NCBI GenBank assembly: GCA_024403415.1
Contig: JAKSRY010000007.1
Location: 1-64,000, forward strand
Source of the DNA: Lachnospiraceae bacterium
GTDB taxonomy: Bacteria; Bacillota; Clostridia; Lachnospirales; Lachnospiraceae
Direction: 5' to 3'
DNA length: 64,000 nucleotides
The notes below the pieces were generated by a model. That model was not told where the DNA came from. It saw only the letters and a program-made list of their open reading frames with translations, and did no database searches. Of this stretch, positions 47,477 to 64,000 are shown one piece after another; the stretch's first letter is position 1, and each line of letters opens with the position of its first letter. A program made the translations under genes and the position numbers.

Positions 47477-48559
47477 ATGAAAACATACTTGGTTACAGGT
47501 GGAGCAGGATTTATTGGATCTAATTTTATTCATTATATGTTCAATAAGTATGATAATGAGATCAGAATCATCAATGTGGATGTACTGACTTATGCAGGTA
47601 ATCTGGAAAATCTTAAGGATATAGAAAACAGGGATAATTACACCTTTGTCAAAGCTGATATATGTGACAAAGATGCAATTTACAAGATATTTAATGAAAA
47701 TGAGATTGATTATGTTGTTCATTTTGCAGCAGAATCTCATGTAGACAGATCAATCAAAAATCCTGAAGTATTTGTACAGACAAATGTACTTGGAACAGCA
47801 GTGATGTTAAACTCTGCAAAGGCATCGTGGGAACTTCCGGATGGTTCATTTAAAGAGGGAAAGAAGTTTCTTCATGTATCGACCGATGAAGTATATGGAT
47901 CTTTGGATGAGGATGGTGGATATTTTTATGAGACCACTCCATATTCACCACACAGCCCATATTCTGCTTCGAAAGCATCGTCAGACATGCTTGTAAAGAG
48001 TTATATGGATACTTATAAGTTCCCTGCTAACATTACAAACTGTTCAAACAATTATGGACCGTATCAGTTCCCTGAAAAACTTATTCCACTTATCATAAAC
48101 AATGCATTGCAGGGAAAGAAACTTCCTGTATATGGGGATGGTAAGAATGTACGTGACTGGCTTTACGTTATGGACCATGCAAAAGCAATTGACATGGTTA
48201 TTAATAAAGGAAAACTTTTTGAAACCTATAATGTCGGAGGACATAATGAGAAACAGAATATAGAGATTATTAATATTATTCTGGATACTCTTCAGGAGAT
48301 GCTTGATGATTCTGATCCGAGAAAGGCTTTGGCAACAAAAGAACTTATTACTTATGTTGAAGACCGTAAGGGACATGACAGAAGATATGCAATTGCACCT
48401 GATAAGATTAAAGCAGAAATAGGCTGGGAGCCTGAAACCATGTTTAAGGAAGGTATAAAGCTTACTATTAAGTGGTTCTTTGAACATGAAGACTGGATGA
48501 AGAATGTTACATCCGGTGATTATCAGAAATATTATGATGATATGTATTCTAACAAATAA
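47477..48559 (+). CDS. rfbB: dTDP-glucose 4,6-dehydratase
   Basis: A 360-residue extended SDR enzyme that converts dTDP-glucose to dTDP-4-keto-6-deoxyglucose, step two of dTDP-rhamnose synthesis. The NAD site GGAGFIGSNF, the STDEVYG segment with Thr/Asp/Glu catalytic residues, and the YSASKAS active-site Tyr/Lys are present. AAGGAGG lies 8 nt upstream. First of the rfbB-rfbA-rfbC set. Confidence 0.96.
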   Translation: MKTYLVTGGAGFIGSNFIHYMFNKYDNEIRIINVDVLTYAGNLENLKDIENRDNYTFVKADICDKDAIYKIFNENEIDYVVHFAAESHVDRSIKNPEVFVQTNVLGTAVMLNSAKASWELPDGSFKEGKKFLHVSTDEVYGSLDEDGGYFYETTPYSPHSPYSASKASSDMLVKSYMDTYKFPANITNCSNNYGPYQFPEKLIPLIINNALQGKKLPVYGDGKNVRDWLYVMDHAKAIDMVINKGKLFETYNVGGHNEKQNIEIINIILDTLQEMLDDSDPRKALATKELITYVEDRKGHDRRYAIAPDKIKAEIGWEPETMFKEGIKLTIKWFFEHEDWMKNVTSGDYQKYYDDMYSNK

Positions 48560-48582: not shown

Positions 48583-49452
48583 ATGAAAGGGATTATCCTT
48601 GCCGGTGGATCCGGTACCAGATTATATCCATTAACCAAAGCAATCAGCAAACAGATTATGCCGGTATATGATAAGCCAATGATATACTATCCGTTGTCAA
48701 TTCTTATGCTTGCCGGAATAAGAGAAGTTCTGATTATTTCAACACCCAGGGATTTGCCTGTTTTTAAGGAACTTCTTGGAGATGGTAAGAATCTCGGAAT
48801 GAAATTTGAATATGCTGTTCAGGAAACTCCACGAGGTTTGGCAGATGCTTTCATTATAGGTGAAAAGTTTATAGGTAATGACAGCGTTGCTCTTATTCTT
48901 GGTGACAATATTTTTTATGGTCAGAGTTTTTCGAAGATACTGAAGGAGGTCGCTTCAAGAGAAAGCGGCGCAACTATTTTCGGTTATTATGTCAGAGATC
49001 CCAGGGAATATGGAGTGGTTGAATTTGACGAGAATGGAATGGCTATATCAATAGAGGAAAAGCCCGAAAATCCAAAGAGTAATTATGCGGTTCCGGGATT
49101 ATATTTTTATGACAATGATGTAGTAGAAATTGCAAAGAATGTTAAACCGTCTGCCAGAGGTGAAATAGAGATTACCAGTATCAACAATGAGTATTTGAGA
49201 AGAGGAACTCTTCGTGTAGAAACTTTAGGTAGAGGGTTTGCATGGCTTGATACAGGAAATCATGATTCACTTCTTGATGCTGCGGATTTTGTGTCTGCTT
49301 TTCAGAAGAGACAGGGCCTGTACATATCATGTATAGAAGAAATAGCATATAAGCGTGGATTTATTTCCAAGGAACAGTTGCTTGAGCTGGCAGCTCCGCT
49401 TATGAAGACTGCATATGGACAATACCTGGTTGAGGTTGCCGAAGGCCTGTAG
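48583..49452 (+). CDS. rfbA: Glucose-1-phosphate thymidylyltransferase
   Basis: A 289-residue nucleotidyltransferase that forms dTDP-glucose from dTTP and glucose-1-phosphate, step one of dTDP-rhamnose synthesis. N-terminal motif [22 protein letters not shown] (metal Asp), [15 protein letters not shown] and [11 protein letters not shown] are typical of the short RmlA type. It lies 23 nt after rfbB with an AGGGG site. Its substrate can come from the phosphohexomutase encoded at 58763. Confidence 0.96.
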
Positions 49453-49505: not shown

Positions 49506-50069
49506 ATGGGAAAGATAACAGTTGAAACATGTGAAATAGAGGGACTTAAGGTTATTACGCCACAGGTATTTGGAGACGCAAGAGGGTATTTCGTCGAAAC
49601 TTATAACATGAATGACTTTGTGGCAGCCGGAATTGATACAGTATTTGTACAGGATAATCAGTCTGCATCAAAGAAGGAAGTATTGAGAGGTCTTCATTTT
49701 CAGATTAATTATCCGCAGGATAAGCTTGTAAGGGTTATAAGAGGCGCTGTTTTTGATGTTGCCGTTGACTTGAGAGAAGGTTCGGCGACATTTGGAAAAT
49801 GGTTCGGTGTAGAACTTACAGAAGAAAATAAGAAGCAGTTCTTTATTCCCAAAGGTTTTGCACATGGATTTTATGTATTGAGCGATTATGCAGAGTTTGC
49901 ATATAAATGTTCTGACTTCTATCATCCTAATGATGAGGGAGGACTTAAGTTCGATGATCCTGATATAGGCATTGAATGGCCTTTTGAAGACAAGGATAAA
50001 TTAATTCTTTCCGACAAAGATACAAAATGGGGTGGAATTAAGGAATACATGAAGGAAAAAGGAATTTAA
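49506..50069 (+). CDS. rfbC: dTDP-4-dehydrorhamnose 3,5-epimerase
   Basis: A 187-residue cupin-fold RmlC epimerase: DARGYFVETYN, FVQDNQSASKKEVLRGLHFQ (catalytic His), FDVAVDLREGSATFGKW and the PKGFAHGFYVLSD motif. It makes dTDP-4-keto-L-rhamnose. The final reductase RfbD is not encoded between here and the window end, so it must be elsewhere. AGAGG lies 8 nt before the ATG. Confidence 0.95.
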   Translation: MGKITVETCEIEGLKVITPQVFGDARGYFVETYNMNDFVAAGIDTVFVQDNQSASKKEVLRGLHFQINYPQDKLVRVIRGAVFDVAVDLREGSATFGKWFGVELTEENKKQFFIPKGFAHGFYVLSDYAEFAYKCSDFYHPNDEGGLKFDDPDIGIEWPFEDKDKLILSDKDTKWGGIKEYMKEKGI

Positions 50070-50078
50070 TTTAGAAAT

Positions 50079-51107
50079 ATGAATAAAGATTCTAAGTTAA
50101 AAACAATTGGAAAAACAATTACAAGGAAGCCGGTGGCAATCGGACTGTTCTATACAGTTTGTATTGTGCTGGCTACTCTTATTGTGCTGCATGACAATCC
50201 GCTTGCACCCGATCCGCACAGTGAATTCCTTAAAAAAGTCTGTGCCTGTCTGTTGCTTGGGGTAGGATGCATTATATTTGGATTTTTCTATGATAAAATA
50301 TTTGTGCTGCCAAAAGAGTTGTTTCAGTCAAGAGAACTGATATGGAAACTTTCCAAGAATGACTTTAAGAAAAGATATGCAGGATCATATCTCGGATTTG
50401 TCTGGGCACTTATTCAACCGGTGGTAACGGTTGTTATGTATTGGATTGTCTTTGATGTTGTATTCAATACAAGGTCGCAGATGGTAGCATCCGGAGTTGA
50501 AGTTCCGTATGTTTTATATCTTACCGCAGGTCTGGTCCCGTGGTTTTATTTTTCGGAAGCATTAACTAATGGAACCAATGCATTGCTGGAATACAGCTAT
50601 CTGGTAAAGAAGGTAGTGTTTAAGATATCAATATTGCCAATCATTAAACTGATTGCTGCTACATTTATTCACTTATTTTTCATATGTATTCTGATTATTG
50701 TTTCAATGTGCTATGGATATTATCCAAGTATATATACCATTCAAATTCTTTATTACAGCCTGTGTACATTTGTTCTTGTGCTCGCACTCAGTTATTGTAC
50801 CTGTGCAATTGTGGTATTTTTTAGGGATTTAGGCCAGATAATAGCAATCATCCTGCAGGTGGGAATGTGGGCTACACCTATTCTATGGGATATCAATATG
50901 ATTAAGGACGAAAACTTATTGTTTATTCTAAAACTGAACCCGGTTGTTTACCTGGTTAATGGTTATAGAAACTCAATATATGGTCAGGAATGGTTTTTCA
51001 CACATTTCTATTCTTCGACCTATTTCTGGATGTTTACGGTTACCCTGTTTTGTATAGGGGCATTAATTTTTAAGAGGCTAAAAGTACATTTTGCAGATGT
51101 ATTGTAA
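50079..51107 (+). CDS. ABC-2 type polysaccharide export permease (Wzm/TagG-like)
   Basis: A 342-residue membrane protein. The ABC-2 permease core has six helices, with the family stretch LSKNDFKKRYAGSYLGFVWALIQP just before the first core helix and a hydrophobic YVLYLTAGLVPWFYFSE segment. An extra N-terminal part (about 20-90) adds two helices before the core. The partner ATPase follows 26 nt later. Together they export a lipid-linked polysaccharide such as O-antigen or teichoic acid. The ribosome binding site is weak, so translation may depend on rfbC, which ends 9 nt upstream. Confidence 0.9.
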   Translation: MNKDSKLKTIGKTITRKPVAIGLFYTVCIVLATLIVLHDNPLAPDPHSEFLKKVCACLLLGVGCIIFGFFYDKIFVLPKELFQSRELIWKLSKNDFKKRYAGSYLGFVWALIQPVVTVVMYWIVFDVVFNTRSQMVASGVEVPYVLYLTAGLVPWFYFSEALTNGTNALLEYSYLVKKVVFKISILPIIKLIAATFIHLFFICILIIVSMCYGYYPSIYTIQILYYSLCTFVLVLALSYCTCAIVVFFRDLGQIIAIILQVGMWATPILWDINMIKDENLLFILKLNPVVYLVNGYRNSIYGQEWFFTHFYSSTYFWMFTVTLFCIGALIFKRLKVHFADVL

Positions 51108-51133
51108 GATAAAAAGGTCTTTGGAGCTTTTGT

Positions 51134-52414
51134 ATGGAAAAAGATATAGCTATTCAAGTTAATAATCTCGTAAAGACTTATAAGCTTTATGACAGACCCA
51201 AGGACAGATTAAAGGATGCGCTTGGCTTTGGAAGACGTAAGAAGCTCTATAAAGAGCATGATGCGTTGAAAGGTGTAGATCTGACCATATACAAAGGAGA
51301 GACTGTCGGTATTATTGGAACAAATGGTTCCGGAAAATCTACCATACTGAAAATAATAACAGGCGTTCTTAATCCTACTTCGGGGACAGTAAACGTTGAG
51401 GGAAGAATTTCGGCACTTCTTGAACTGGGTGCAGGATTTAATATGGAATACAACGGTATTGAAAACGTGTATCTTAATGGTACAATGATGGGCTTTTCAA
51501 AGAAAGAAATCGATGAAAAGCTTCCTGCTATTCTTGAATTCGCGGATATCGGAGAGTATGTGAATCAACCGGTTAAAACATATTCATCAGGTATGTTTGT
51601 AAGACTTGCATTTGCTGTTTCGATAAATATAGATCCTGAGATTCTGATTGTTGATGAAGCATTGTCTGTAGGAGATGTTTTCTTCCAGGCCAAATGTTAT
51701 CACAAATTCGAAGAATTTAAGGAAATGGGCAAGACTATTGTTTTTGTAAGCCATGATTTGAGTTCTATAAGTAAGTATTGTGACAGGGTAATTTTATTAA
51801 ATCAGGGTGTTAAATTGGGAGAAGGTACTCCTAAAAAGATGATAGACGCATATAAGCAGGTACTTGTAGGTCAATATCCTCTTCCTGACATAAAGAATAG
51901 CTTTGATGATGATAAAGAAGAAAAAAATATCCTTCCGGAAGAAGGAAATGCTACCTCAGTTAATCCTGAGCTACTGGAATATGGAACGAAAGCGGCTGTT
52001 ATTGAAAGCTATTATCTTGAAGATGAGTCAGGGATTAAAACTTCAGCAATTATCAAGGGCGCAAAATGTACGATGCATATGACAGTTGCAATTAATGAGG
52101 ATATAGCATCGCCTATATTTGCTTTTTCGATTAAGAATATTAAAGGTGTTGAAATAACAGGGACTAATTCTATGTTTGAAAAAGCCTTTTTGGAATCTGT
52201 TAAAAAGGGTGAGAAGAAACATATAACTTTTTCGCAGCCTATAGATCTGAATGGCGGAGAGTATCTTATTTCTCTTGGCGTTACAGGATATGAAAATGAG
52301 ACTTTTGTTGTTTATCACAGATTATATGATGTAATGAATATTACTGTTATTTCGGATAAGAATTCAGTAGGATATTACGATATGAATTCTGAAATTACTG
52401 TGGAGGATGCATAG
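51134..52414 (+). CDS. Polysaccharide export ABC ATPase with Wzt-type C-terminal domain
   Basis: A 426-residue protein. The nucleotide-binding domain (about 1-245) has Walker A GTNGSGKST (residues 62-70), the signature YSSGMFVRLAF (about 150-160), Walker B ILIVDEALSVGD and the switch His in FVSHD. The C-terminal part (about 285-420) is a beta-sandwich of the Wzt_C type, which in E. coli O8/O9a Wzt binds the capped non-reducing end of the polysaccharide and is required for export. Its presence implies recognition of a chain-end mark here too. The next gene, a methyltransferase-kinase fusion, starts at the base after the stop codon. Confidence 0.92.
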   Translation: MEKDIAIQVNNLVKTYKLYDRPKDRLKDALGFGRRKKLYKEHDALKGVDLTIYKGETVGIIGTNGSGKSTILKIITGVLNPTSGTVNVEGRISALLELGAGFNMEYNGIENVYLNGTMMGFSKKEIDEKLPAILEFADIGEYVNQPVKTYSSGMFVRLAFAVSINIDPEILIVDEALSVGDVFFQAKCYHKFEEFKEMGKTIVFVSHDLSSISKYCDRVILLNQGVKLGEGTPKKMIDAYKQVLVGQYPLPDIKNSFDDDKEEKNILPEEGNATSVNPELLEYGTKAAVIESYYLEDESGIKTSAIIKGAKCTMHMTVAINEDIASPIFAFSIKNIKGVEITGTNSMFEKAFLESVKKGEKKHITFSQPIDLNGGEYLISLGVTGYENETFVVYHRLYDVMNITVISDKNSVGYYDMNSEITVEDA

Positions 52415-54493
52415 ATGGGTTATACACCTATTACATTAACTGAAGAAGACATTATTCACCACCTGCCTGAGACTATTGGGCAGGTTTCATTAAATTATGA
52501 TTTTTATCCGGGTGAGGATAAATATTCAGATGGAGCTATTGAAGATGAACTGCTTGAAATTGCGAGCAGTTGTTCCAGAATGGAATATCCGCAGATAATC
52601 GAGGAAAAGAAAAAATGGCCAATCCTTTACCATTTATCTCCGGTACGTGGAAATATTGTGGATTTTCTACCCATCACATCAAAGGATAAGGTTTTGGAGA
52701 TTGGTTCAGGTTGCGGTGCAATTACTGATACCTTGTCTAAAAAGGCTCATAGCGTGACCTGCGTTGATCTTTCCAAAAAAAGAAGCTTTGTTAATGCAAA
52801 CAGAAACCATGATCGTAACAATATTACAATTCATGTTGGTAATTTTAAGGATATTGAGCCTACCTTAGATACTGACTTTGATTATGTATGTCTGATAGGT
52901 GTATTTGAATATGGAGCTTCGTATATTCCTACTGAAACACCATATGAAGATTTTTTGAATATTATTCTTAAACACGTAAAGAAGAATGGTCGAGTAATTA
53001 TAGCCATTGAAAATAAGTTTGGACTTAAATACTGGGCAGGGTGTGCAGAAGATCATAACGGTGAATACTATTCTTCAATCGAAGGATATCCGAATGGCGG
53101 CAGTGCGCGAACCTTTACCCGTCAGGGCTTGGAAAAAATATTTAAGAAATGTGGTGTAGATGAATATTCATTCTATTATCCGTATCCGGACTATAAGCTT
53201 ATGCATACGTTATATTCGGATAAAAGGCTTCCGCAGAAGGGAGAATTGACAGATAACACCTGTAATTATGATAGGAACAGGCTTAAAACCTTCAATGAGA
53301 GCTTTACTTTTGACTCAATTATAGAGGATGATGAGTTTCCTATGTTTAGTAATTCGTATCTGGCGATTATTGGACCTGATATTGATACTAAATATGTTAA
53401 GTTCTCTAATGACAGAAAAGAAGAGTATGCCATAAGAACTGAAATAACAGTTGATGAAGTGATTAAAGTTCCTATGGATATGAAAGCCAGAAATCATCTA
53501 AAGAGGATGGCTGAAGCGTATACCAAATTGAAAGCCAGATATGAGGGTTCAGGACTTAAAATCAATAAATGTGTATTTGATGACGATACAGGAATTGCCC
53601 ATTTCGAATTTGAAAAAGGAATCTCTCTTGAAGTTTTGATGGATGAAGCCCTGTTTAATAAAGATTTTAAGAAATTTGAAGAATTATTTGATAAATATTA
53701 TGAATATGTTTCCTACAATACAGCTGCCGGAATTACAAATTATGACATGATATTTGCAAACATACTTGTATCTGATGAATGTTGGACAGTTATAGACTAC
53801 GAGTGGACTTTTGATGCGAATAAAACGTCAGAAGAGGTAGCTTATAGGGCACTTTACTGCTATTTGTTGGAAAATCAGCGTCGAAACTGTTTTGATTTTA
53901 GTAAACTGACCGGCAAAATTGGAATTACAGAGGAAATGGCCGAATTATTCAGAGAAAGGGAAAAGACCTTCCAAAAGAGTGTGACGGGCAATCGTGAATC
54001 ACTTGGTGAAATCAGAGCTACAATTGGAACCTATGTGATTGATACAGTAGAACTGGCAGAAAAAGAACTAAAACGTATAGTAAATGAACGTATCCAGGTA
54101 TATTTTGATAATGGAGAAGGCTATTCAGAACAGAATTCAAAATATATACCTGATGTATATAAGGATAAAAACCATATTGAAGCAGATATTGAATTTGATG
54201 GAAACGTAAAAATGTTAAGAATTGATCCTGCAGATTTCAGGGCCGTGGTGAAGATAAACGAACTTGTCATCAATGGAATTAACGTTTTGGACAATAAAAA
54301 ATTCATACAGACTAATGGAAAAACCATAAAATATGGCACATATGTCTTTAATACAGAGGATCCGAACATAAATTTAAGGTTAAATGAAGTTTTAATCAAG
54401 GGTGAAAACGTATTACATATAGATATGGAAGTGATTCCTGTGTCTGCGGAGATTGCGTTGGATATTTCGAATTCGATTAAGAAATTGTTTTAA
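52415..54493 (+). CDS. Methyltransferase-kinase fusion, WbdD-like chain-terminator candidate
   Basis: A 692-residue protein. Residues about 60-270: class I SAM methyltransferase with motif I VLEIGSGCGAITDTL (from residue 93) and the acidic VTCVDLS strand. Residues about 335-510: a kinase-like domain with N-lobe-like KFSNDRKEEYAIRTE, a catalytic loop NYDMIFANIL (Asp444, Asn449) and a metal-binding VIDYEW (Asp461). Residues about 515-550 are helical; 570-690 form a beta-rich domain (FDGNVKMLRIDPADFRAVV). Length and order match WbdD, which ends O-antigen chains by phosphorylation and methylation. No gap separates it from the Wzt-like gene. The methyltransferase call is firm; the kinase call rests on motif reading. 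Confidence 0.8.
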   Translation: MGYTPITLTEEDIIHHLPETIGQVSLNYDFYPGEDKYSDGAIEDELLEIASSCSRMEYPQIIEEKKKWPILYHLSPVRGNIVDFLPITSKDKVLEIGSGCGAITDTLSKKAHSVTCVDLSKKRSFVNANRNHDRNNITIHVGNFKDIEPTLDTDFDYVCLIGVFEYGASYIPTETPYEDFLNIILKHVKKNGRVIIAIENKFGLKYWAGCAEDHNGEYYSSIEGYPNGGSARTFTRQGLEKIFKKCGVDEYSFYYPYPDYKLMHTLYSDKRLPQKGELTDNTCNYDRNRLKTFNESFTFDSIIEDDEFPMFSNSYLAIIGPDIDTKYVKFSNDRKEEYAIRTEITVDEVIKVPMDMKARNHLKRMAEAYTKLKARYEGSGLKINKCVFDDDTGIAHFEFEKGISLEVLMDEALFNKDFKKFEELFDKYYEYVSYNTAAGITNYDMIFANILVSDECWTVIDYEWTFDANKTSEEVAYRALYCYLLENQRRNCFDFSKLTGKIGITEEMAELFREREKTFQKSVTGNRESLGEIRATIGTYVIDTVELAEKELKRIVNERIQVYFDNGEGYSEQNSKYIPDVYKDKNHIEADIEFDGNVKMLRIDPADFRAVVKINELVINGINVLDNKKFIQTNGKTIKYGTYVFNTEDPNINLRLNEVLIKGENVLHIDMEVIPVSAEIALDISNSIKKLF

Positions 54494-54535: not shown

Positions 54536-56755
54536 ATGAACCCTAAACGTCTTGTAAAAGAACTGTTGATTGCAAAATGCGAAAATAGCTATAAAAAGCA
54601 AGTAAAGTCCAAAAAAACGGATTATTCTAAATGGATTAAAGAGCAGGAAGAAGCACTTTTAAAGAATAGTCAGTCAAAATTATCCAAAATAAATTGTCAG
54701 ACAATTGATTTACAAACGAATGAAACTGACGGAGAAAATTCAAAAAATGAAAGCGGACTTGCAGAATATGGTAAATTATGTAAACTAATCGCGATTTCAG
54801 ACAGGGATAAGTCAGAAAATTGTGTGACAAATTGCATTCTTTATGCAGGAAGGAATCCCTCCGATTTACAAAAATCGTTAAAAAATGTGAAAGAACCGAT
54901 TGAGATAGTGATTTTTCAAAAAAATGAAGGTTTATTCACAGATTTCGCATTTGAATTAGTTTACGATACATTTAACAAAAACAAAAATCAAATCATGATT
55001 TACTCAGATGAGGATGTGATTGATTCTGAGGGGGAAAGGTCTCAACCCTGGTTTAAGCCTGACTGGGCCCCGGAAGACTTTACTTCCTTTGACTATTTTG
55101 GAAGTTTTGTAGCTATACGAGCAGAGATATTAAAAAATTACAATCTGGATAACTTTGGTTCTATATATGAATTGGAATTTAATGTTTTAAAAGACAATGG
55201 TGCATTTACAAAACATGTGACAGATTCGGTTGTAGGACATATAGCTCATGCTCTATATCATACGAGAAATGTTTCCGGTTATGAAAGCATTGAAAAGAAC
55301 CTGTTAAAATATGAAGCTGCAAGTGAATTCTTTAACCAAATTCGTGAAAATATACCATCCCATGTATCAATTATAATACCATCCAAGGATCATCCCGAGG
55401 TTTTGCGCCGGTGTCTTGAGTCACTGACGAATAAAACAGTTCTTCATAATAACAGAGATTACGAGATAATAGTTGTAGATAATGGAAGCAATGACGAAAA
55501 TCGTAAAGAATATGAGAAATTAGTTAATGAAATAAAAATAACATGCGGTATTAAAAGCGAATACCACCATGATTCATACGCATTCAACTTCTCAAAGATG
55601 TGCAATTATGGAGCTTCAAAGGCTTCAGGCAACTATTACCTCTTTCTTAATGACGATATGGAAATCGTTGATGAAAAATGGCTTAACAGAATGCTTGATA
55701 TGGCAACATTGTCATACGCAGGTGCCGTCGGAGCTAAACTTTTATATCCACCTTCAAGGAACGTGGAAACCAAAGTTTATGATTACGATGATGTAATTCA
55801 GCATGCAGGAATAACTAATTTAAGAATTGGTCCGGCGCATAAATTGCAGTTTATGTCCGATTCTACAGATCATTACTATGGAAGAAACCGTTTTTGTCAT
55901 GATATGATGGGGGTAACAGGAGCATGTCTTCTGGTAAAGAAATCCATTTTTGATGAAGTTGATGGTTTTGACGAGAATCTTGCAGTAGCTTTTAATGATG
56001 TTGATCTTTGCTACAAAATATATGAAGCCGGTTTTTATAATATAGAATGTAATGACATTATTCTGTATCACCATGAATCTTTGAGCAGAGGAAATGATGC
56101 TGAATCAAAGGAGAAACAATTAAGACTGAATCGCGAAAAGGACTATCTGTATGAGAAGCATCAGAATCTATATGGAAAAGATCCTTATTACAATGTAAAT
56201 TTAACCACAGACATGCTAGAGAATGAGTATGGTCCTAAATATCATTATGAGGTTAATTTACAAGGAGATTTCAGCATCCCTTCGGAAATAACCGATGTTA
56301 TTAAGGATGTAAATGAAGATAAGTGTGTAAGAATTGGCATGGAATGTGCCATGGATATATATAAATGGAAATATGGGGTATCCAGACAGAAGTGTCCGAT
56401 TGAACCGACAGAGAATGATTTGGGCTTCTATTTCAGAGGTTATTCCTTTGTTATAGGCGCGAATAACGCATGCTATAATAAGACGCTTTTAATGAAAAAT
56501 CTCAGTACTGGCGCGGTTTTTGGCGTGGATGTGGAATTGGAGTACAGACCTGATATCAAAAAGAACCTTAGGGATCAGCTAAATGTAGATTTAACAGGAT
56601 ATTCCGCTAAAATTGCGCTGGATTCGATTCCGCAGGGTGAATACTTATTTGGAATGTATGTTAAGGATAAGACATCCAAACAGCAGTTGCTTAACTGGAG
56701 TTCATGGACTATAGATACTAAATCTTCAAGTGTAGGAGAAACATATGGATTATAA
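54536..56755 (+). CDS. Large GT2 glycosyltransferase with incomplete first domain
   Basis: 739 residues. The N-terminal 130 residues are charged and helical. Residues about 125-250 hold only the second half of a GT2 domain (MIYSDEDVIDSEGERSQPWF, FGSFVAIRAEIL) with no nucleotide-binding opening, so this domain seems inactive. A complete GT2 domain follows (about 275-520): SIIIPSKDHPEVLRRCL, VVDNGSND, FLNDDMEI, VTGACLLVKK, FNDVDLCYKI. The C-terminal 140 residues form a beta-rich domain similar in pattern to Wzt_C-type modules. Rhamnosyltransferases of rhamnan clusters have this double-domain plan. It overlaps the next gene by 11 nt. Confidence 0.87.
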   Translation: MNPKRLVKELLIAKCENSYKKQVKSKKTDYSKWIKEQEEALLKNSQSKLSKINCQTIDLQTNETDGENSKNESGLAEYGKLCKLIAISDRDKSENCVTNCILYAGRNPSDLQKSLKNVKEPIEIVIFQKNEGLFTDFAFELVYDTFNKNKNQIMIYSDEDVIDSEGERSQPWFKPDWAPEDFTSFDYFGSFVAIRAEILKNYNLDNFGSIYELEFNVLKDNGAFTKHVTDSVVGHIAHALYHTRNVSGYESIEKNLLKYEAASEFFNQIRENIPSHVSIIIPSKDHPEVLRRCLESLTNKTVLHNNRDYEIIVVDNGSNDENRKEYEKLVNEIKITCGIKSEYHHDSYAFNFSKMCNYGASKASGNYYLFLNDDMEIVDEKWLNRMLDMATLSYAGAVGAKLLYPPSRNVETKVYDYDDVIQHAGITNLRIGPAHKLQFMSDSTDHYYGRNRFCHDMMGVTGACLLVKKSIFDEVDGFDENLAVAFNDVDLCYKIYEAGFYNIECNDIILYHHESLSRGNDAESKEKQLRLNREKDYLYEKHQNLYGKDPYYNVNLTTDMLENEYGPKYHYEVNLQGDFSIPSEITDVIKDVNEDKCVRIGMECAMDIYKWKYGVSRQKCPIEPTENDLGFYFRGYSFVIGANNACYNKTLLMKNLSTGAVFGVDVELEYRPDIKKNLRDQLNVDLTGYSAKIALDSIPQGEYLFGMYVKDKTSKQQLLNWSSWTIDTKSSSVGETYGL

Positions 56756-58721
56756 GGAACAATATGAAGCAGAACATTTAAGGAATGCTGACCTTGCAGG
56801 AAGGGTTGCTGAACTTGAAGCCAAAGTGGATGATTTGGAATTCAAGCTTAACCGTATTAAGACTAATCCTATTTGGAAAGCATCGGGACCGTTTCGTAAA
56901 GCCATGCATTTTAGCGCAAGACAATTGAGACGAATTAAGAATTGCGGATCAATAAGCGGTATTCGGGCCAAGATTAAATATAAAAAGAATGAAAAGATTG
57001 CCATGCAGCAGTTTGGAACTAAAAGCTTTCCGGATGAAGCAAGAAGGAAAATTGAAGAGGAAACGGTATTTGACAATGCAGTAAAGATAAGTATTCTGGT
57101 ACCTCTTTATAATACGCCGGAAGAGTTTTTACGTGAAATGATTGATTCAGTTAAGAATCAGACATATTCAAACTGGGAGCTTTGCCTTGCCGACGGATCC
57201 GACGATAAGCATGACTATGTTGAAAAGGTTGTTGCCGAATACATAGAAAAAGACACTGCTGATAACAAAAATAACACGCGTATTGTTTATAAAAAGCTTG
57301 AAAAGAACGAAGGAATTTCAGGAAATACCAACCAGTGTCTGAAACTTGCAACTGGAGAGTATATCGGACTTTTTGATCATGATGATATTCTTCATCCGTC
57401 TGTTCTGTTTGAATACGTAAAGGCTATTAATGAGAAGAATGCAGACTATCTTTACTGTGACGAAACAACATTTAAGTCCGGAAGTATAGACAAAATGCTT
57501 ACAATGCATTTCAAACCGGATTATGCAATAGATAATCTGAGAGCCAACAATTATATCTGCCATTTCAGTGTATTTAAGAGAACTCTGCTTGATGGTGATG
57601 AACTGTTCAGGTCTCAGTTTGACGGAAGTCAGGATCATGACATGATTTTGAGACTGACTGATAAGGCACAGAATATAGTCCATATTCCAAGACTTATGTA
57701 TTACTGGAGATGTCACGAGGGGTCTGTTGCTTCCAATATAGAAGCAAAGCCATATGCAATTGAAGCAGCAAGAGGTGCCGTGGCAGATCATTTGAGAAGA
57801 CATGGATACGATCACTTTAAGATTACTTCAACGAGAGCTTTTGAAACAATTTTTAAGATCCGTTATGAAATAATCGGAACACCGCTTATTTCCATAGTTA
57901 TTCCGAATAAAGACCATATTGATGATCTTTCCAGATGTATCAATTCAATTCTTGAAAAATCCACATATGACAATTATGAAATTATCGTAGTGGAGAATAA
58001 CAGTCAGGAAGACAAAACCTTTGAATACTACAAGCAAATTCAGGAAAATGCAAAAATAACAGTTGTTACATATGAGAATAAAGGCGCTAAATTCAATTAT
58101 TCTAAGGTAGTAAACTATGGTGAGTCTTTCGCGAAGGGTGAATATGTTCTACTTCTTAATAATGATATAGAAGTAATAACTGTTAACTGGCTGGAAGAAC
58201 TGCTTATGTATGCCCAGCGTGAAGACGTAGCCTGTGTTGGGGCCAAACTGTATTATCCTAACAAGACTATTCAGCATGCAGGAGTTGTTCTTGGGCTTGG
58301 GGCTCACAGAACGGCAGGACACAGTCATTATATGCAGCACAGGGAAAATCTTGGATATATGGGAAGACTGTGTTACACACAGGATGTATCAGCAGTGACA
58401 GGTGCATGCCTTCTTGTGAAAAAGTCGTTATATGATCTCGTTGACGGACTTTCGGAAGACTTTGAAATATCGCTTAACGACGTTGACTTTTGTCTTAAGT
58501 TAAGGGAAAAGGGTTATCTTAATGTATTTACACCTTTTGCAGAATTATATCATTATGAGTCTGCTTCGAGAGGATCGGATCTTACGGGCGAAAATGCAGA
58601 CAGGTACAACAGGGAGTCTGAACAGTTTAGAAATAAATGGGCTTCGATTCTTGAAAAGGGAGACCCGTATTATAATCCAAATTTTTCATTAGATAAAAGT
58701 GATTTTTCACTTAAAATATGA
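56745..58721 (+). CDS. Bidomain GT2 glycosyltransferase (rhamnan/O-antigen type)
   Basis: 658 residues: an N-terminal coiled coil (about 8-45), a first GT2 domain (about 112-330) with ISILVPLYNTPEEFL, FDHDDIL and GSQDHDMILRL, and a second GT2 domain (about 380-615) with ISIVIPNKDHIDDLSRC, LLLNNDIEV, VSAVTGACLLVKKSLY and LNDVDFCLKLREKGY. Both DXD-like metal motifs are intact, unlike the gene before it. Such proteins add two successive linkages of a repeating unit. No TM helix. It starts inside the end of the previous gene, so translation is coupled. Confidence 0.92.
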   Translation: MDYKEQYEAEHLRNADLAGRVAELEAKVDDLEFKLNRIKTNPIWKASGPFRKAMHFSARQLRRIKNCGSISGIRAKIKYKKNEKIAMQQFGTKSFPDEARRKIEEETVFDNAVKISILVPLYNTPEEFLREMIDSVKNQTYSNWELCLADGSDDKHDYVEKVVAEYIEKDTADNKNNTRIVYKKLEKNEGISGNTNQCLKLATGEYIGLFDHDDILHPSVLFEYVKAINEKNADYLYCDETTFKSGSIDKMLTMHFKPDYAIDNLRANNYICHFSVFKRTLLDGDELFRSQFDGSQDHDMILRLTDKAQNIVHIPRLMYYWRCHEGSVASNIEAKPYAIEAARGAVADHLRRHGYDHFKITSTRAFETIFKIRYEIIGTPLISIVIPNKDHIDDLSRCINSILEKSTYDNYEIIVVENNSQEDKTFEYYKQIQENAKITVVTYENKGAKFNYSKVVNYGESFAKGEYVLLLNNDIEVITVNWLEELLMYAQREDVACVGAKLYYPNKTIQHAGVVLGLGAHRTAGHSHYMQHRENLGYMGRLCYTQDVSAVTGACLLVKKSLYDLVDGLSEDFEISLNDVDFCLKLREKGYLNVFTPFAELYHYESASRGSDLTGENADRYNRESEQFRNKWASILEKGDPYYNPNFSLDKSDFSLKI

Positions 58722-58762: not shown

Positions 58763-60484
58763 ATGAATTACAAAGAACAGTATGATTTTTGGCTCAAGGA
58801 TTCGTATTTTGACGAAGAAACCCGTAATGAACTTAATGCAATTAAAGATGATGAAAAGGAAATCGAAGACAGATTCTATAAGGAACTTGAATTTGGAACA
58901 GGTGGTTTAAGAGGTGTTATCGGTGCCGGCTTAAACAGAATGAATGTTTATACCGTAAGAAAGGCAACCCAGGGTCTTGCCAACTTCATTAAGAAGAGTG
59001 GAGCGCAGGATAAGGGAGTTGCTATCGCATATGATTCAAGAAGAATGAGTCCCGAATTTGCTGATGTTGCTGCATTATGTCTTAATGCAAACGGAATCAA
59101 GGCTTATGTTTTTGATTCACTACGTCCGACTCCGGAACTTTCTTTTGCACTTAGATATCTTAAGTGTACCGCAGGTATTGTTGTAACTGCTTCTCATAAT
59201 CCTCCGGAGTACAATGGTTATAAGGTGTACTGGGAAGATGGTGCACAGGTTACACCACCATACGACACAGATATTATTAATGAAGTTAAAGCAATTACAG
59301 ATATTACAACACCACTTACCATGAGTCTTGAGGATGCTAAGGCTGCCGGACTCTATGTTGTAATTGGATCTGAAATTGATGACAAATATATGGAAGAGCT
59401 TAAAAAGCAGATTATTCATCCTGAAATCATCAAGGAAATGGCTAATGACATCAAGATTGTTTATTCTCCTTTCCATGGAACAGGTAACATCCCTGTAAGA
59501 AGAATTCTTAGTGAATTAGGTTTCAAGAATGTATATGTTGTTCCGGAACAGGAACTCCCGGATCCTGATTTTACAACTCTTGATTATCCTAATCCGGAGG
59601 ATCCAAAAGCTTTTGAACTTGCTCTTAAGCTTGCAAAAGAAAAGAATGCGGATGTAGTTCTCGCAACAGACCCTGATGCGGACAGACTTGGTATTTACGC
59701 TTTAGACAGTAAGACCGGTGAATATATGCCATTTACAGGAAATATGTCAGGTATGGTTATTGCAGAGTACATATTCAGAGAAAGAATGGCAACAGGTACA
59801 ATGCCTGAAAATCCTGCTCTTGTTACAACAATAGTAACAACAAATATGGCACGTGCAATTGCAAATAAATATAACCTCAAGTTTATCGAAGTACTGACAG
59901 GATTTAAGTACATCGGTGAACAGATTAAGATCTTTAAGCGCGATAATACATATAACTATGTATTTGGTCTTGAAGAATCATACGGATGCCTTGCAGGAAC
60001 TCATGCAAGAGATAAGGATGCTGTAGTTGCAGTTATGTGCCTTTGTGAAGTTGCAGCATGGTGTAAGAAGCAGGGAATTACTCTTTGGGATCAGATGATT
60101 AATCTCTATAAGGAGTATGGTTACTTCAAGGAAACTCAGTACACAATCACTCTTAAGGGACTTGATGGAGCTCAGAAGATTCGTGAGATTATGGATAAGT
60201 TAAGAAATAATCCTCCTAAGAAGCTTGCTGATTATGACGTAGTTGAATTTAGAGATTACGATCAGAATGTTTGCATCAACTATGCAAATGATACAAAGGG
60301 TGAGACAGGACTTCCAAAGTCAAATGTTCTTTATTTTGACCTTACAAAGGATGCATGGTGCTGTGCACGTCCGTCAGGAACTGAACCCAAGATTAAATTC
60401 TACATGGGTGTTAAGGGAGAATCTCTTGAAGATTCAAATAAGCTTGTTGAAGAGCTTACAGAAGCAGTTAAGGCATTAATCTAA
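58763..60484 (+). CDS. pgcA: Phosphoglucomutase/phosphomannomutase
   Basis: A 573-residue alpha-D-phosphohexomutase of the PgcA type that interconverts glucose-6-phosphate and glucose-1-phosphate. Motifs: GTGGLRGVIG, the phosphoserine loop TASHNPPEYNGYK (Ser144), metal loop ATDPDADRLG, sugar loop GLEESYGC and phosphate loop RPSGTEPKIKFY. It supplies glucose-1-phosphate to rfbA upstream. AAAGGAG lies 8 nt before the ATG. It has its own promoter and a terminator after it, so it can be expressed apart from the cluster. Confidence 0.93.
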   Translation: MNYKEQYDFWLKDSYFDEETRNELNAIKDDEKEIEDRFYKELEFGTGGLRGVIGAGLNRMNVYTVRKATQGLANFIKKSGAQDKGVAIAYDSRRMSPEFADVAALCLNANGIKAYVFDSLRPTPELSFALRYLKCTAGIVVTASHNPPEYNGYKVYWEDGAQVTPPYDTDIINEVKAITDITTPLTMSLEDAKAAGLYVVIGSEIDDKYMEELKKQIIHPEIIKEMANDIKIVYSPFHGTGNIPVRRILSELGFKNVYVVPEQELPDPDFTTLDYPNPEDPKAFELALKLAKEKNADVVLATDPDADRLGIYALDSKTGEYMPFTGNMSGMVIAEYIFRERMATGTMPENPALVTTIVTTNMARAIANKYNLKFIEVLTGFKYIGEQIKIFKRDNTYNYVFGLEESYGCLAGTHARDKDAVVAVMCLCEVAAWCKKQGITLWDQMINLYKEYGYFKETQYTITLKGLDGAQKIREIMDKLRNNPPKKLADYDVVEFRDYDQNVCINYANDTKGETGLPKSNVLYFDLTKDAWCCARPSGTEPKIKFYMGVKGESLEDSNKLVEELTEAVKALI

Positions 60485-60621: not shown

Positions 60622-61974
60622 ATGAATTCAAATATTGTAAAAACGCTGAATTATCTTAAGAAGAACGGTCCGGTGAAGACTTTTTATGCCGTTAAAGAGC
60701 GAATGAGCGAAAACAGGCAGACAGAATATATTTATACACCGATAACCGAAGAGATTAAGAAAAAGCAGACAGATATTTCAAAAGAATATACAACAAAAGT
60801 GAGTATCCTGGTGCCGACATATGAGACTAAACCACAATTTATGGAGGCTCTTATCGATTCGGCCATATCACAGACCTACGCAAACTGGGAGCTTGTTCTT
60901 GCAGATGCTTCCAAGTCAGACATAGTTAAGGCGACTGTTGATAAATATACAGATGACAGGATCAAATATGTTCGACTGGAGGCTAATTTAGGTATATCCG
61001 GTAATTCGAATGCTGCAATTGCCCATTGCACAGGCGAATACACGGGGCTCCTTGATCATGATGACGTTCTGACAGAAGATGCGTTGTTTGAGATGGTAAG
61101 CTGCATTGAAAATTCAAAAAAGTCGGATTGCCTGCTGAAAATGATTTATTCAGATGAAGATAAGATGAATGCAGATGGAAATGAATTCTTTGATCCGAAT
61201 ATCAAGCCTGATTTTAACCTGCAGCTGCTTTTGTCCAATAATTATATATGTCATTTTCTTGTGCTTGAAACCGGGCTTCTTAAATTGCTTGGATTCAGAA
61301 AAGAATATGATGGAGCACAGGATCATGACCTTATTCTTCGAAGTGTTTCAAAACTGATGGAAGAATATGAGGAGTCATACCAAAATCGTATAGGTCACGT
61401 GGATAAAGTGCTCTATCACTGGAGAAGCCATGAAAATTCAACGGCCGGCAACCCCAAGAGTAAGCAGTATGCCTATGAAAGCGGAAAAAGAGCGGTTCAG
61501 GATTTTGTTGACAGACAAAATTGGAACGGCAAGGTGACAGATATCGAGCATATGGGCTTTTTCAGGGTTGAATATGCGCCGGATATCTTTGCAAACAGAA
61601 AAGATGTGGCGGCTGTCGGAAGACGTATTATCGGAAAAGGTGGCCTGGTTACGGATGGAATATATGATGAGCATCATTCCGTGATGTTTGAAGGCCTGAA
61701 CAGGCATCACAGTGGGGGAATTCTTCATCGTGCGGCATGCCAGATGGAAGTGCCTTATGTCAGCATCCGGAGTATGATTGTGTCAGAGACTGCAAAACCT
61801 GTTCTTGAGGATATTATTAATAAGCATTCAGCGGATGAGAATCCTGATTATAAAGCTATAAGTATTGAATTTTGTGATGTGATGAGGCAAAAAGGGTATA
61901 TATTTGTATATGACCCTAAAATGACGGTAAAGAAAAAGAATGTCCAGAACTACTTTGGTAATACCAAACATTAA
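60622..61974 (+). CDS. GT2 glycosyltransferase with decayed second domain
   Basis: 450 residues. A complete GT2 domain (about 58-300): VSILVPTYETKPQFM, GISGNSNAAIA, LLDHDDVL, YSDEDKMNADGNEFF, YDGAQDHDLILR, and the YHWRSHENSTAGN ending. Residues about 325-410 (VAAVGRRIIGKGGLVTDGIY onward) align by pattern with the middle of a second GT2 domain but lack its opening and its DXD motif, so only one active site is expected. It resembles the first half of the bidomain protein at 56745. AAAAGGA precedes the ATG. Its 3' end overlaps the next gene by 35 nt. Confidence 0.87.
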   Translation: MNSNIVKTLNYLKKNGPVKTFYAVKERMSENRQTEYIYTPITEEIKKKQTDISKEYTTKVSILVPTYETKPQFMEALIDSAISQTYANWELVLADASKSDIVKATVDKYTDDRIKYVRLEANLGISGNSNAAIAHCTGEYTGLLDHDDVLTEDALFEMVSCIENSKKSDCLLKMIYSDEDKMNADGNEFFDPNIKPDFNLQLLLSNNYICHFLVLETGLLKLLGFRKEYDGAQDHDLILRSVSKLMEEYEESYQNRIGHVDKVLYHWRSHENSTAGNPKSKQYAYESGKRAVQDFVDRQNWNGKVTDIEHMGFFRVEYAPDIFANRKDVAAVGRRIIGKGGLVTDGIYDEHHSVMFEGLNRHHSGGILHRAACQMEVPYVSIRSMIVSETAKPVLEDIINKHSADENPDYKAISIEFCDVMRQKGYIFVYDPKMTVKKKNVQNYFGNTKH

Positions 61975-62908
61975 CGGAACTGAATATATAGAAAACTGTT
62001 TGGACTCTGTGTTTGCTTCAGATGTTGAAGTAAGCGTTATTGTAGTGGATAATGGTTCTACTGATGGCTCGGTTGATATTATTAAAGAAAAATATCCACA
62101 GGTTGATCTTATTTGCCATGCAGAGAATACAGGATTTTGCAAGGCAACCAATGAAGGAGCTGTGAAAGCGAAAACAGAATTTGTCATGTTTCTTAATAAT
62201 GATACTGTTATTAAGGAAGATGCGGTGAGAATTCTTGAGGGGAGTATGGATGCTCATCCTGAAGCTTTTTCAATCCAGGCGCTGATGCTTTCGCTTAAGG
62301 AACCTGAAATTATAGATTCTGCGGGAGATGAGTACTGCGCTCTCGGATGGGCCTTTGCCCGAAAAAAAGGAAAAAATGTATCAAAGCTTGGTCAACGCGA
62401 TAAACTTTTCAATGTCTTCTCAGGATGCGGCGGAGCATGTCTTTACAGGAAATCAGTCCTTGATGAGATAGGTGTCCTTGATGAGAATCATTTTGCATAT
62501 CTTGAGGATGTGGATTTAGGATACAGGGCATTGATTTACGGATATAAAAACTTCTGCGCGAAAAATGCAGTGGTATATCATGCGGGCTCGGCATTTTCAG
62601 GATCTCGGCATAATTCATTTAAGGTAAATCTTTCATCCAGAAACAGTATTTATCTGATTTACAAGAATATGCCGATATTGCAGAAAATAATTAACTTGCC
62701 TTTTTTACTTATAGGTTATTTAATTAAGATAGCGTTTTTTACATTGAAAGGGCTCGGGGGAACCTATGTTAAAGGTGTTTTTACAGGCGTTAAAATGTCT
62801 TTTGGCAGGGAAACTACTCCGAACAGAGTGAAATTCAGATTCAAAAATCTTGGTAATTATTTTTTGATTCAGTTCAGATTGTGGATTAACATTTTTAAGA
62901 GATTCTGA
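61940..62908 (+). CDS. GT2 glycosyltransferase (rhamnosyltransferase-like)
   Basis: A 322-residue GT2 enzyme: TLVIPNINGTEYIENCL, VVDNGSTDGSVDII, FLNNDTVI (DXD-type), GCGGACLYRKSVLDEIG and YLEDVDLGYRALIYG, with a hydrophobic segment near residues 245-270 (LPFLLIGYLIKIAFFTL) that may bind the membrane. The pattern fits rhamnosyltransferases of WbbL type. It begins within the previous gene, 35 nt before that gene's stop, so expression of the two is linked. It may supply the second activity missing from the previous protein (inference). Confidence 0.88.
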   Translation: MSRTTLVIPNINGTEYIENCLDSVFASDVEVSVIVVDNGSTDGSVDIIKEKYPQVDLICHAENTGFCKATNEGAVKAKTEFVMFLNNDTVIKEDAVRILEGSMDAHPEAFSIQALMLSLKEPEIIDSAGDEYCALGWAFARKKGKNVSKLGQRDKLFNVFSGCGGACLYRKSVLDEIGVLDENHFAYLEDVDLGYRALIYGYKNFCAKNAVVYHAGSAFSGSRHNSFKVNLSSRNSIYLIYKNMPILQKIINLPFLLIGYLIKIAFFTLKGLGGTYVKGVFTGVKMSFGRETTPNRVKFRFKNLGNYFLIQFRLWINIFKRF

Positions 62909-62994: not shown

Positions 62995-64000
62995 ATGATT
63001 AAAGATAATCAGAAATTATTTAACAGACTTCATCTTGTAGTAGATGCAATTGTTGTTGCAATTTCATATGTGCTGGCATGGTTTCTTAAGTTTGCAACAT
63101 GGTTTTCAAAAATAGACCCGGCAGCAGGCTCCATTGATAACAGAACTTATTTTGGCGTTATGTGGTTCCTGATACCGATGTATGTGGTTCTGTATTATAT
63201 GTTCAACATGTATGCACCCAAACGATCAACCATGCGAAGGTATGAGATTTTTGGAATCTTTAAGGCAAATACCGTGGGAATTGTTCTTTTCATGGTTATA
63301 TTGTTTATGGTAGAAAAATATGATGTTTCAAGAACGATGATCATATCTTTCTATATTATAAATGTTATACTGACAACACTCGTAAGAATGCTGGTCAGAC
63401 TTATCCTTCAGAGTTTCAGACGTAAGGGATATAACCTTAAATATGTACTTCTTGTAGGCTATTCAACGGCTGCGGAGGAATACATTAACAGAATTAACCA
63501 GAATCCTCAGTGGGGATATGTTATAAGAGGAATTTTGGATGATACGATTCCAAGGGGAACACTGTACAAGGGAGTTAAGGTTGTTGGAAGTATTGAAAAT
63601 CTTAAATATATTCTTCCTGAAAACAAGCTTGATGAGGTTGCGATTACAATTGCCTTAAAGGACTACGACAGACTTGCAAGTATTGTGGATTTGTGTGAAA
63701 AATCGGGTGTGCATACAAAATTCATTCCTGATTACACTTCCTTGGTTCCGTCAAATCCGTATACGGAAGATGTTATGGGACTTCCTGTTATAAATATAAG
63801 GTATGTTCCCTTAAATAATTCACTGAATCTGTTCGCGAAAAGAACCTTTGACATTGTCGGTTCACTGCTTGGAATAATAGTGTTTAGTCCTATTATGCTG
63901 TTCACTGCAATTGCGGTTAAGCTTTCTTCGAAGGGACCTATAATATTCAGACAGGAAAGAATCGGCCTTCACAACAAGCCGTTTATGATGTTCAAATTCA
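62995..64000 (+). CDS. Polyprenyl-phosphate sugar phosphotransferase (3' partial)
   Basis: The first 335 codons of a WcaJ/CpsE-like initiating transferase, which moves a sugar-1-phosphate from a nucleotide sugar to undecaprenyl phosphate. Four N-terminal TM helices (about 10-28, 50-72, 85-110, 120-140) are followed by a Rossmann-like CoA_binding_3 domain (YVLLVGYSTAAEEYI, then IRGILDD) and a fifth membrane helix at about 285-305. The catalytic domain has begun (KRTFDIVGSLLG, GPIIFRQERIGLHNKPFMMFKF) when the window ends. GGATAGGA lies 5 nt before the ATG. It probably starts the lipid-linked glycan made by the glycosyltransferases upstream. Confidence 0.9.
   Translation, partial: MIKDNQKLFNRLHLVVDAIVVAISYVLAWFLKFATWFSKIDPAAGSIDNRTYFGVMWFLIPMYVVLYYMFNMYAPKRSTMRRYEIFGIFKANTVGIVLFMVILFMVEKYDVSRTMIISFYIINVILTTLVRMLVRLILQSFRRKGYNLKYVLLVGYSTAAEEYINRINQNPQWGYVIRGILDDTIPRGTLYKGVKVVGSIENLKYILPENKLDEVAITIALKDYDRLASIVDLCEKSGVHTKFIPDYTSLVPSNPYTEDVMGLPVINIRYVPLNNSLNLFAKRTFDIVGSLLGIIVFSPIMLFTAIAVKLSSKGPIIFRQERIGLHNKPFMMFKF

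What the first reader, a model, noticed from the sequence alone, without database searches (positions are those of the whole stretch)
50079..54493. Wzm/Wzt-like exporter with carbohydrate-binding tail joined to a methyltransferase-kinase fusion in a Gram-positive-type genome
Seen: permease, ATPase with a C-terminal beta domain of Wzt_C type, then with no gap a 692-residue protein with SAM motif I (from residue 93) and kinase-like NYD...N (Asp444, Asn449) and IDYE (Asp461). Known: in E. coli O8/O9a, WbdD caps the chain by methylation or phosphorylation plus methylation, and the Wzt tail must bind that cap for export. Inference: this cluster makes a rhamnose-containing polymer whose length is set by a similar end cap, a mechanism I do not know to be described for Firmicutes surface glycans.
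Basis: partly seen in the sequence, partly recalled or inferred. Interest (0 to 1): 0.78.

Follow-up and report, generated by a model that had tools for sequence, protein, structure and literature searches.

The report
Phosphate-cap enzyme paired with glycan exporter
A gut bacterium carries an enzyme that probably caps the growing end of a rhamnose-containing wall polysaccharide with methyl-phosphate, next to an exporter whose binding pocket looks built to read that cap, and relatives whose methylating half has decayed show matching changes in the pocket.

Summary
In detail: permease, Wzt with a Wzt_C domain, then with no gap a 692-aa methyltransferase-kinase, inside a cluster conserved in Lachnospiraceae.

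The closest characterised relative is not WbdD but the Klebsiella O7 terminator ORF6-N: of its seven published active-site residues six are kept and one is Glu-to-Asp. No room is left for a long coiled-coil ruler, so 'length is set by the cap' is unsupported; 'the cap licenses export' fits.

New here: (1) of 58 strong Wzt_C domains in 295 genomes, 55 have this kinase nearby, against 0 of 33 weaker ones. (2) Where Aquifex Wzt stacks Trp362 on its methyl cap, kinase-linked Wzt has Arg (132 of 133, one gap) and kinase-less Wzt never does (0 of 19). (3) The methyltransferase's SAM loop decayed several times while the kinase stayed; one methyl-pocket position is Gly in 115 of 115 intact loci and Ser in 15 of 16 decayed ones.

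This predicts methyl-phosphate and phosphate-only caps read by the transporter. Few independent events (sign test p=0.25), no structure model, no biochemistry. Capped export in Firmicutes has precedents (Geobacillus, C. difficile); I found no printed MT-kinase terminator there.

The parts
47477..48559 (+). rmlB, dTDP-glucose 4,6-dehydratase
   Evidence: ORF; label from homology and synteny
48583..49452 (+). rmlA, glucose-1-phosphate thymidylyltransferase
   Evidence: NTP_transferase E=2e-76
49506..50069 (+). rmlC, dTDP-4-dehydrorhamnose 3,5-epimerase
   Evidence: dTDP_sugar_isom E=3e-72
50079..51107 (+). Wzm-type permease
   Evidence: ABC2_membrane E=4e-15
51134..52414 (+). Wzt ATPase with C-terminal carbohydrate-binding domain (residues 282-417)
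   Evidence: Wzt_C E=8e-39; Aquifex Wzt 8dku E=1e-82 over most of its length; C domain alone best matches 2r5o, E=3e-10
52079..52081 (+). Wzt Met316 codon, proposed methyl sub-pocket
   Evidence: third of 408 columns by co-variation with MT state
52121..52123 (+). Wzt Ala330 codon, proposed methyl sub-pocket
   Evidence: second of 408 columns, Ala to Thr
52277..52279 (+). Wzt Gly382 codon, equivalent of Aquifex Ala348
   Evidence: first of 408 columns, Gly to Ser
52319..52321 (+). Wzt Arg396 codon, equivalent of Aquifex Trp362
   Evidence: Arg in 132 of 133 kinase-set Wzt, 0 of 19 kinase-less
52415..54493 (+). Methyltransferase (about 19-320) - kinase (about 324-545) - beta-type C-terminal domain (about 560-680)
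54536..56755 (+). GT2-family glycosyltransferase, 739 aa
   Evidence: Glycos_transf_2 E=4e-18
56745..58721 (+). Glycosyltransferase with two GT2 domains, 658 aa
   Evidence: two Glycos_transf_2 stretches, E=1e-45
58763..60484 (+). Phosphoglucomutase/phosphomannomutase
   Evidence: PGM_PMM domains I-III
60622..62908 (+). Two further GT2 glycosyltransferases (450 and 322 aa; the ORFs overlap)
   Evidence: Glycos_transf_2 E=2e-23 and 6e-24
62995..64000 (+). Start of a sugar-phosphate initiating transferase that runs past the window end; an LCP-family gene follows outside the window (L221:2613-3971)
   Evidence: Bac_transf E=1e-74 and LytR_cpsA_psr E=1e-33 on L221 of the same contig

Best explanation
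The cluster builds a rhamnose-containing wall glycan on a lipid carrier in the cytoplasm. The 692-aa protein ends the chain: its APH-like kinase phosphorylates the non-reducing terminal sugar (probably O-3 of rhamnose, by analogy with Klebsiella O7) and its methyltransferase then methylates that phosphate. The Wzt C domain binds the capped end, Arg396 near the phosphate and the Met316/Ala330/Gly382 sub-pocket near the methyl ester, and so licenses export through Wzm; an LCP enzyme probably then ties the glycan to peptidoglycan. Shown by sequence: gene order, domain homology, conserved catalytic residues, pairing across genomes, co-variation of pocket residues with enzyme content. Inferred: the reaction, the sugar and position, the contacts, the order of steps, the licensing.
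For: Published O7 residues Y28, Y66, G91, G93, E112, Y158, D441 (PMC11231755) correspond to Y37, Y72, G97, G99, D118, Y166, D444; a Pseudomonas relative has the first six at exactly those numbers (the Klebsiella sequence itself was not in hand). Profile comparison with the two Gram-negative relatives: MT 100% E=9e-46, kinase 96.1% E=3e-9; unrelated controls at most 0.9%. Kinase against 12 APH proteins: 43-62%, at the catalytic loop only. Pairing: 55 of 58 strong Wzt_C with kinase within 10 kb, 0 of 33 weaker ones. L091 fuses Wzt and the enzyme in one ORF. Arg in 132 of 133 against 0 of 19. 2r5o, the Wzt C domain of E. coli O9a, whose cap is methyl-phosphate (PMC3482155), aligns Arg and Gly at these places; Aquifex, with an O-methyl cap, has Trp and Ala. 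Gly/Ser follows MT state in 130 of 131 loci. Columns explaining 85% or more of MT state: C domain 3 of 171, NBD 0 of 241, kinase 0 of 220, GTb 0 of 572, Wzm 1 of 260.
Against: No structure model and no biochemistry. Few independent events: sign test 3 to 0 with one tie, p=0.25, on both trees. The E<1e-35 cut that separates the Wzt_C classes was chosen after seeing the list, and the kinase profile was built partly from the same genomes. Most of the 115 intact loci are close relatives. L038 has an altered SAM loop but Gly. Of 76 kinase matches listed, 21 places have no Wzt_C within 10 kb (contig ends, weak matches to another family, and real exceptions). L217, L218 and L248 have MT and kinase beside a Wzt without C domain; L246 has a kinase with no Wzt in 19 kb. 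One Wzm column reaches 0.86 without clean separation. Against solved structures the kinase region reaches only E=0.002 (GCN2) and 0.08 (JAK1). A methyltransferase next to wzt is not confined to Trp-type loci (L259, L260).
Confidence: 0.78

Rival explanations
1. The enzyme caps the chain but the cap is only a decoration; Wzt_C binds some other part of the glycan and the two genes travel together because the whole cluster is inherited as a unit.
For: Gene order is conserved as a block in near relatives, so pairing alone could be linkage. L217, L218 and L248 manage with a Wzt lacking the C domain.
Against: Architecture and gene order differ widely (fused, split, fused to glycosyltransferases, MT before wzm, and so on) while the pairing with one Wzt_C class holds. 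The residues that change with MT state sit in the C domain, one of them a named methyl-pocket residue, and not in the NBD. MT-decayed rows do not form one clade on the Wzt NBD tree (p-AU 1e-7).
Confidence: 0.12
2. The kinase-like domain is catalytically silent or phosphorylates something else, and the methyltransferase O-methylates the terminal sugar directly, as in Geobacillus or Aquifex.
For: No solved-structure match above E=0.002 for the domain; direct methyl caps are known in Firmicutes (PMC2943079).
Against: Catalytic set complete in 134 of 143 matches and 10 of 10 outside the order. The O7 relative of this domain was shown in vitro to be a kinase killed by D441A (PMC11231755). Arg replaces the methyl-stacking Trp. 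Where one half decays it is the MT; I saw no locus with an intact MT and a clearly dead kinase, though one search lists 9 of 143 incomplete kinase sets, some of them fragments, that were not all examined.
Confidence: 0.07
3. In the MT-decayed lineages another methyltransferase elsewhere in the genome takes over, so all caps are methyl-phosphate and the Ser/Thr pocket merely drifted.
For: L250 shows a separate intact MT beside a decayed fused one.
Against: A strict SAM-motif scan found no other MT in the fetched stretch of 15 of 16 loci with decayed or altered MT, the exception L250 being the one with Gly. The scan is narrow and does not see the rest of the genomes.
Confidence: 0.2

Closest known systems
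Klebsiella pneumoniae O7 terminator ORF6-N (Kelly et al. 2024, PMC11231755; outline, section 11 part 1 and section 13 part 1 read)
   Same: Order methyltransferase, APH-like kinase, immunoglobulin-like domain; six of seven published active-site residues plus Asp for Glu112; neighbour of Wzm and Wzt with C domain; rhamnose-containing polymer.
   Different: The window protein has no fused glycosyltransferases and no visible coiled coil; it is in a Gram-positive-type cluster with an LCP ligase. The paper aligned orthologues from alpha- and gammaproteobacteria and cyanobacteria. Similarity of the third domain is weak here (13.7%, E=0.002).
WbdD of E. coli O9a (PMC3482155; section 4 read in full)
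   Same: Fused methyltransferase and kinase beside an ABC exporter with a cap-binding Wzt; likely the same cap, methyl-phosphate.
   Different: WbdD has a eukaryotic-type kinase with a DFG motif and a long C-terminal coiled coil; here the motif is IDYEW and the kinase matches another family.
WsaE with Wzm/Wzt of Geobacillus stearothermophilus (PMC2943079, passages)
   Same: Firmicute, polyrhamnan, terminal methylation predicted to be read by Wzt.
   Different: Direct 2-O-methylation, no kinase; target is an S-layer protein.
S-layer glycan of C. difficile SLCT-11 (PMC6254364, passages)
   Same: Firmicute, rhamnose-rich glycan, ABC exporter, phosphate at the terminal rhamnose.
   Different: Cap is 2,3-cyclic phosphate; enzyme not identified in the passages seen; the word methyltransferase does not occur in the text.
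Aquifex aeolicus WzmWzt (PMC9445017, passages)
   Same: Same transporter family and cap-pocket positions.
   Different: Cap is 3-O-methyl sugar, stacked by Trp362; here Arg.

Membership tests
O7-type methyltransferase-kinase terminator | SAM-binding methyltransferase with the published O7 residues | tested here: met
   Y37, Y72, G97, G99, D118 (for Glu), Y166; MT profile 100%, E=9e-46
O7-type methyltransferase-kinase terminator | APH-like kinase with catalytic Asp441 | tested here: met
   Asp444, Asn449, Asp461, Glu463, Lys351; profile 96.1%, E=3e-9 against two Gram-negative relatives. Sequence level only; no fold model
O7-type methyltransferase-kinase terminator | Immunoglobulin-like domain after the kinase | tested here: inconclusive
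   13.7%, E=0.002 over 112 collinear columns against the Pseudomonas relative; controls at most 0.5%
O7-type methyltransferase-kinase terminator | Coiled-coil ruler | tested here: inconclusive
   Crude heptad score not above shuffles, but the Pseudomonas positive control failed too and RmlB passed. By length there is room for only about 130 residues after the kinase, filled by the third domain
O7-type methyltransferase-kinase terminator | Adds 3-methyl-phosphate to terminal rhamnose | not testable with these tools
   needs enzyme assay and NMR
WbdD | Eukaryotic-type kinase with DFG and Gly-rich loop | tested here: inconclusive
   IDYEW in place of DFG; WbdD chains did not appear among the 60 of 123 PDB matches shown
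WbdD | C-terminal coiled coil of some 250 residues | tested here: not met
   Protein ends at residue 692, about 150 after the kinase
Wzt with cap-binding C domain | Wzt-type NBD plus Wzt_C domain | tested here: met
Wzt with cap-binding C domain | Binds the terminal cap | not testable with these tools
   pocket residues co-vary with enzyme content; binding not measured

The most novel reading that the evidence does not exclude
The exporter pocket spells the cap. Trp at the 396 position means O-methyl, Arg means phosphate; with Arg, small or hydrophobic residues at 316/330/382 (Met, Ala, Gly) mean methyl-phosphate, and polar ones (Ser or Glu, Thr, Ser) mean an unmethylated phosphate, perhaps cyclic as in C. 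difficile SLCT-11. In several Clostridia lineages the cap methyltransferase has become a conserved pseudo-enzyme beside a working sugar kinase, and the transporter has re-tuned its pocket each time, with one return where a separate methyltransferase and a SAM synthetase joined the cluster (L250).
Probability: 0.55. Interest if true: 0.86.

Novelty: new variant of a known kind. Interest (0 to 1): 0.72.

Why it matters
How ABC exporters tell a finished glycan from an unfinished one is known for a handful of Gram-negative or Aquifex systems. If right, the same licensing runs in the walls of common gut Clostridia, three pocket positions make cap chemistry predictable from Wzt sequence, and natural losses of the methyltransferase give ready-made pairs for testing which part of the cap the transporter reads. 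It also offers a candidate enzyme family for phosphate caps in Firmicutes.

Tried and rejected
P0001 against 295 genomes gave 113 with matches, but many of these are generic methyltransferases, so the kinase profile was used for counts instead (68 of 295). E. coli genomes: no DNA match to the Citrobacter gene. Three 'phage' records from faecal samples match and were set aside as probable bacterial contigs, not examined. Single kinase segments against Pfam: one of 20 touched Choline_kinase at E=0.0085, the rest noise. The coiled-coil score was too crude to use (positive control failed, RmlB passed). RmlB could not serve as a control in the column scan, as no MT-decayed locus had it. WbdD as nearest kin and 'length set by the cap' were rejected as above. 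Rows dropped before counts: L255 (Wzt cut at contig end), so 19 of 20 fetched loci and 20 of 33 weaker hits were read; in the column scans, columns with over 20% gaps.
Full report
What is there. The three ORFs are as described. The cluster reads rmlB, rmlA, rmlC, wzm, wzt, methyltransferase-kinase (MTK), GT, GT, phosphohexomutase, GT, GT, then on the same contig a Bac_transf initiator and an LCP-family gene. RmlD is elsewhere in the genome.

What the 692-aa protein is. The N-terminal part is a class I methyltransferase. The middle part has no family match alone. A profile of 47 homologues touches protein kinases weakly (GCN2 E=0.002; with a broader set JAK1 E=0.08). Two plasmid-borne Gram-negative relatives were found with tblastn: Citrobacter braakii (649 aa, beside rmlBACD, an ABC permease and ATPase) and Pseudomonas asturiensis (1457 aa, with two C-terminal GT2 domains). 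The Pseudomonas protein has Y28, Y66, G91, G93, E112 and Y158 at exactly the numbers that Kelly et al. give for Klebsiella O7 ORF6. Profile comparison gives MT 100% (E=9e-46), kinase 96.1% (E=3e-9), third domain 13.7% (E=0.002); APH proteins 43-62% at the catalytic loop; unrelated families at most 0.9%. I therefore place it with the O7-type terminators, which were shown in vitro to add methyl-phosphate to O-3 of terminal rhamnose (PMC11231755).

Pairing with Wzt. In the same 295 genomes of the order, Wzt_C rings in 81 and the kinase profile in 68. Of 58 Wzt_C matches with E<1e-35, 55 have the kinase within 10 kb on the same strand, median gap 963 bases; the other three lie in genomes with a kinase on another contig. 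Of 33 weaker matches, none has. Genome table 58/23/10/204. The cut was chosen after seeing the list, relatedness is not removed, and 21 kinase places have no Wzt_C near. In a sample of 341 genomes of the class, 22 have the kinase, 11 of them outside the order, one of these weakly; 10 of these 11 were fetched, 8 of the 10 have Wzt_C beside the kinase, L248 has a Wzt without C domain and L246 none.

The pocket. In Aquifex Wzt the 3-O-methyl cap sits in a pocket of Leu300, Thr346, Ala348 and Trp362 (PMC9445017). Aligned on that, the window has Ser332, Ser380, Gly382 and Arg396. Arg stands at the Trp362 position in 132 of 133 Wzt of the kinase set (one gap) and in 0 of 19 kinase-less Wzt, of which 17 are aromatic. 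In two of the 133 (L151, L220) the sequence model found no kinase in the locus: L151 carries the divergent Citrobacter enzyme, L220's genome has its kinase on another contig. The best structural match of the window's C domain is 2r5o, E=3e-10, against 2e-4 for Aquifex; 2r5o is E. coli O9a Wzt (PMC6286764 legend), whose cap is methyl-phosphate, and it aligns Arg and Gly at 396 and 382. Of ten kinase-less Trp-type loci, seven have a methyltransferase directly after wzt, as a methyl-only cap would need; but two of the Tyr/Phe-type loci have one too.

Decay of the methyltransferase. In 7 of 7 genomes of one genus (g10) the kinase follows a separate 162-199 aa ORF that aligns with the MT but reads VLIIDPDSEAL or similar where the SAM glycine loop should be. 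Nei-Gojobori ratios for it are 0.05-0.18 in the 17 of 21 pairs that could be computed; many dS values exceed 1, so these are rough, but they resemble the kinase's and speak for selection on the protein. L209, L211, L247, L249, L251 and the fused copy of L250 also lost the loop; L038, L067, L069, L212 and L252 keep the first Gly only. On a kinase tree of 51 rows the loss needs at least 5 changes, 6 with the altered ones. On a tree of Wzt NBDs the decayed rows again fall in separate places and one clade is rejected (p-AU 1e-7).

Co-variation. Among 131 loci with Wzt_C and kinase, the Ala348 position is Gly in 115 of 115 with an intact MT and Ser in 15 of 16 without; the exception is L038. L250 is counted intact: its fused MT is dead, but a separate MT with a good SAM loop and a SAM synthetase gene stand beside it, and its Wzt has Gly within a clade of Ser. 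A scan of 408 Wzt columns puts 382 (Gly to Ser), 330 (Ala to Thr) and 316 (Met to Ser, Glu or Tyr) first, all in the C domain. By the same measure no column of the NBD (241), kinase (220) or GTb (572) reaches 0.85, three of the C domain (171) do, and one of Wzm (260) does but without clean separation. Phylogenetically there are few events: three pairs agree, none disagrees, one ties, p=0.25.

Reading. I read this as a chain-end cap whose phosphate is read by Arg396 and whose methyl ester is read by the 316/330/382 sub-pocket. The kinase is the constant part; the methyl is optional. Length control is a different matter: the rulers of O9a and O7 are coiled coils, and this protein has no room for a long one. 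In some relatives the kinase continues into long proteins with glycosyltransferase domains, where a ruler could sit; that was not tested soundly.

Known or new. Terminal methylation with Wzm/Wzt in Geobacillus and a terminal cyclic phosphate in C. difficile SLCT-11 are in print. In searches of the open-licence library I saw no MT-kinase terminator reported for Firmicutes and no cap code in Wzt; subscription papers, among them the O9a Wzt papers I tried to open, are not held, so the claim is limited to that library.

Noticed in passing
L250:10658-11797 (-): A SAM synthetase gene (three S-AdoMet_synt domains) lies inside the glycan cluster between an intact methyltransferase and a kinase fusion with a dead methyltransferase.
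   Followed up: partly
L204:2673-3494; similar-sized ORFs of 273-275 aa in L070, L203, L205, L206, L208: A secreted-looking glycerophosphodiesterase (GDPD) gene between wzm and wzt in the genus with the decayed methyltransferase; only L204 was tested by Pfam.
   Followed up: partly
L247:6316-7209 and L252:10862-11539: Metallo-beta-lactamase-fold gene next to wzt in two clusters with lost or altered methyltransferase; role unknown.
   Followed up: no
L091:8411-12064: Wzt and the methyltransferase-kinase form one 1217-aa ORF with an acidic linker.
   Followed up: partly
L217, L218, L248: Methyltransferase and kinase beside a short Wzt (242-248 aa) without C domain, so these caps would have no C-domain reader.
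   Followed up: no
L210, L213, L214, L215: A distant family of about 750-800 aa proteins matching the MT and kinase weakly, often next to sugar genes, without Wzt_C nearby.
   Followed up: no
window 33021-36943: Two adjacent EAL-domain proteins of similar length (651 and 656 aa).
   Followed up: no
window 44828-47461: A GH25 lysozyme-like protein with choline-binding repeat, SpaA domain and acidic tyrosine-rich repeats near its N terminus, just upstream of rmlB.
   Followed up: no
MT839147.1, MT836085.1, MT836982.1 (phages collection): Three unannotated 'Bacteriophage sp.' faecal records match the methyltransferase-kinase; they may be bacterial contigs.
   Followed up: no
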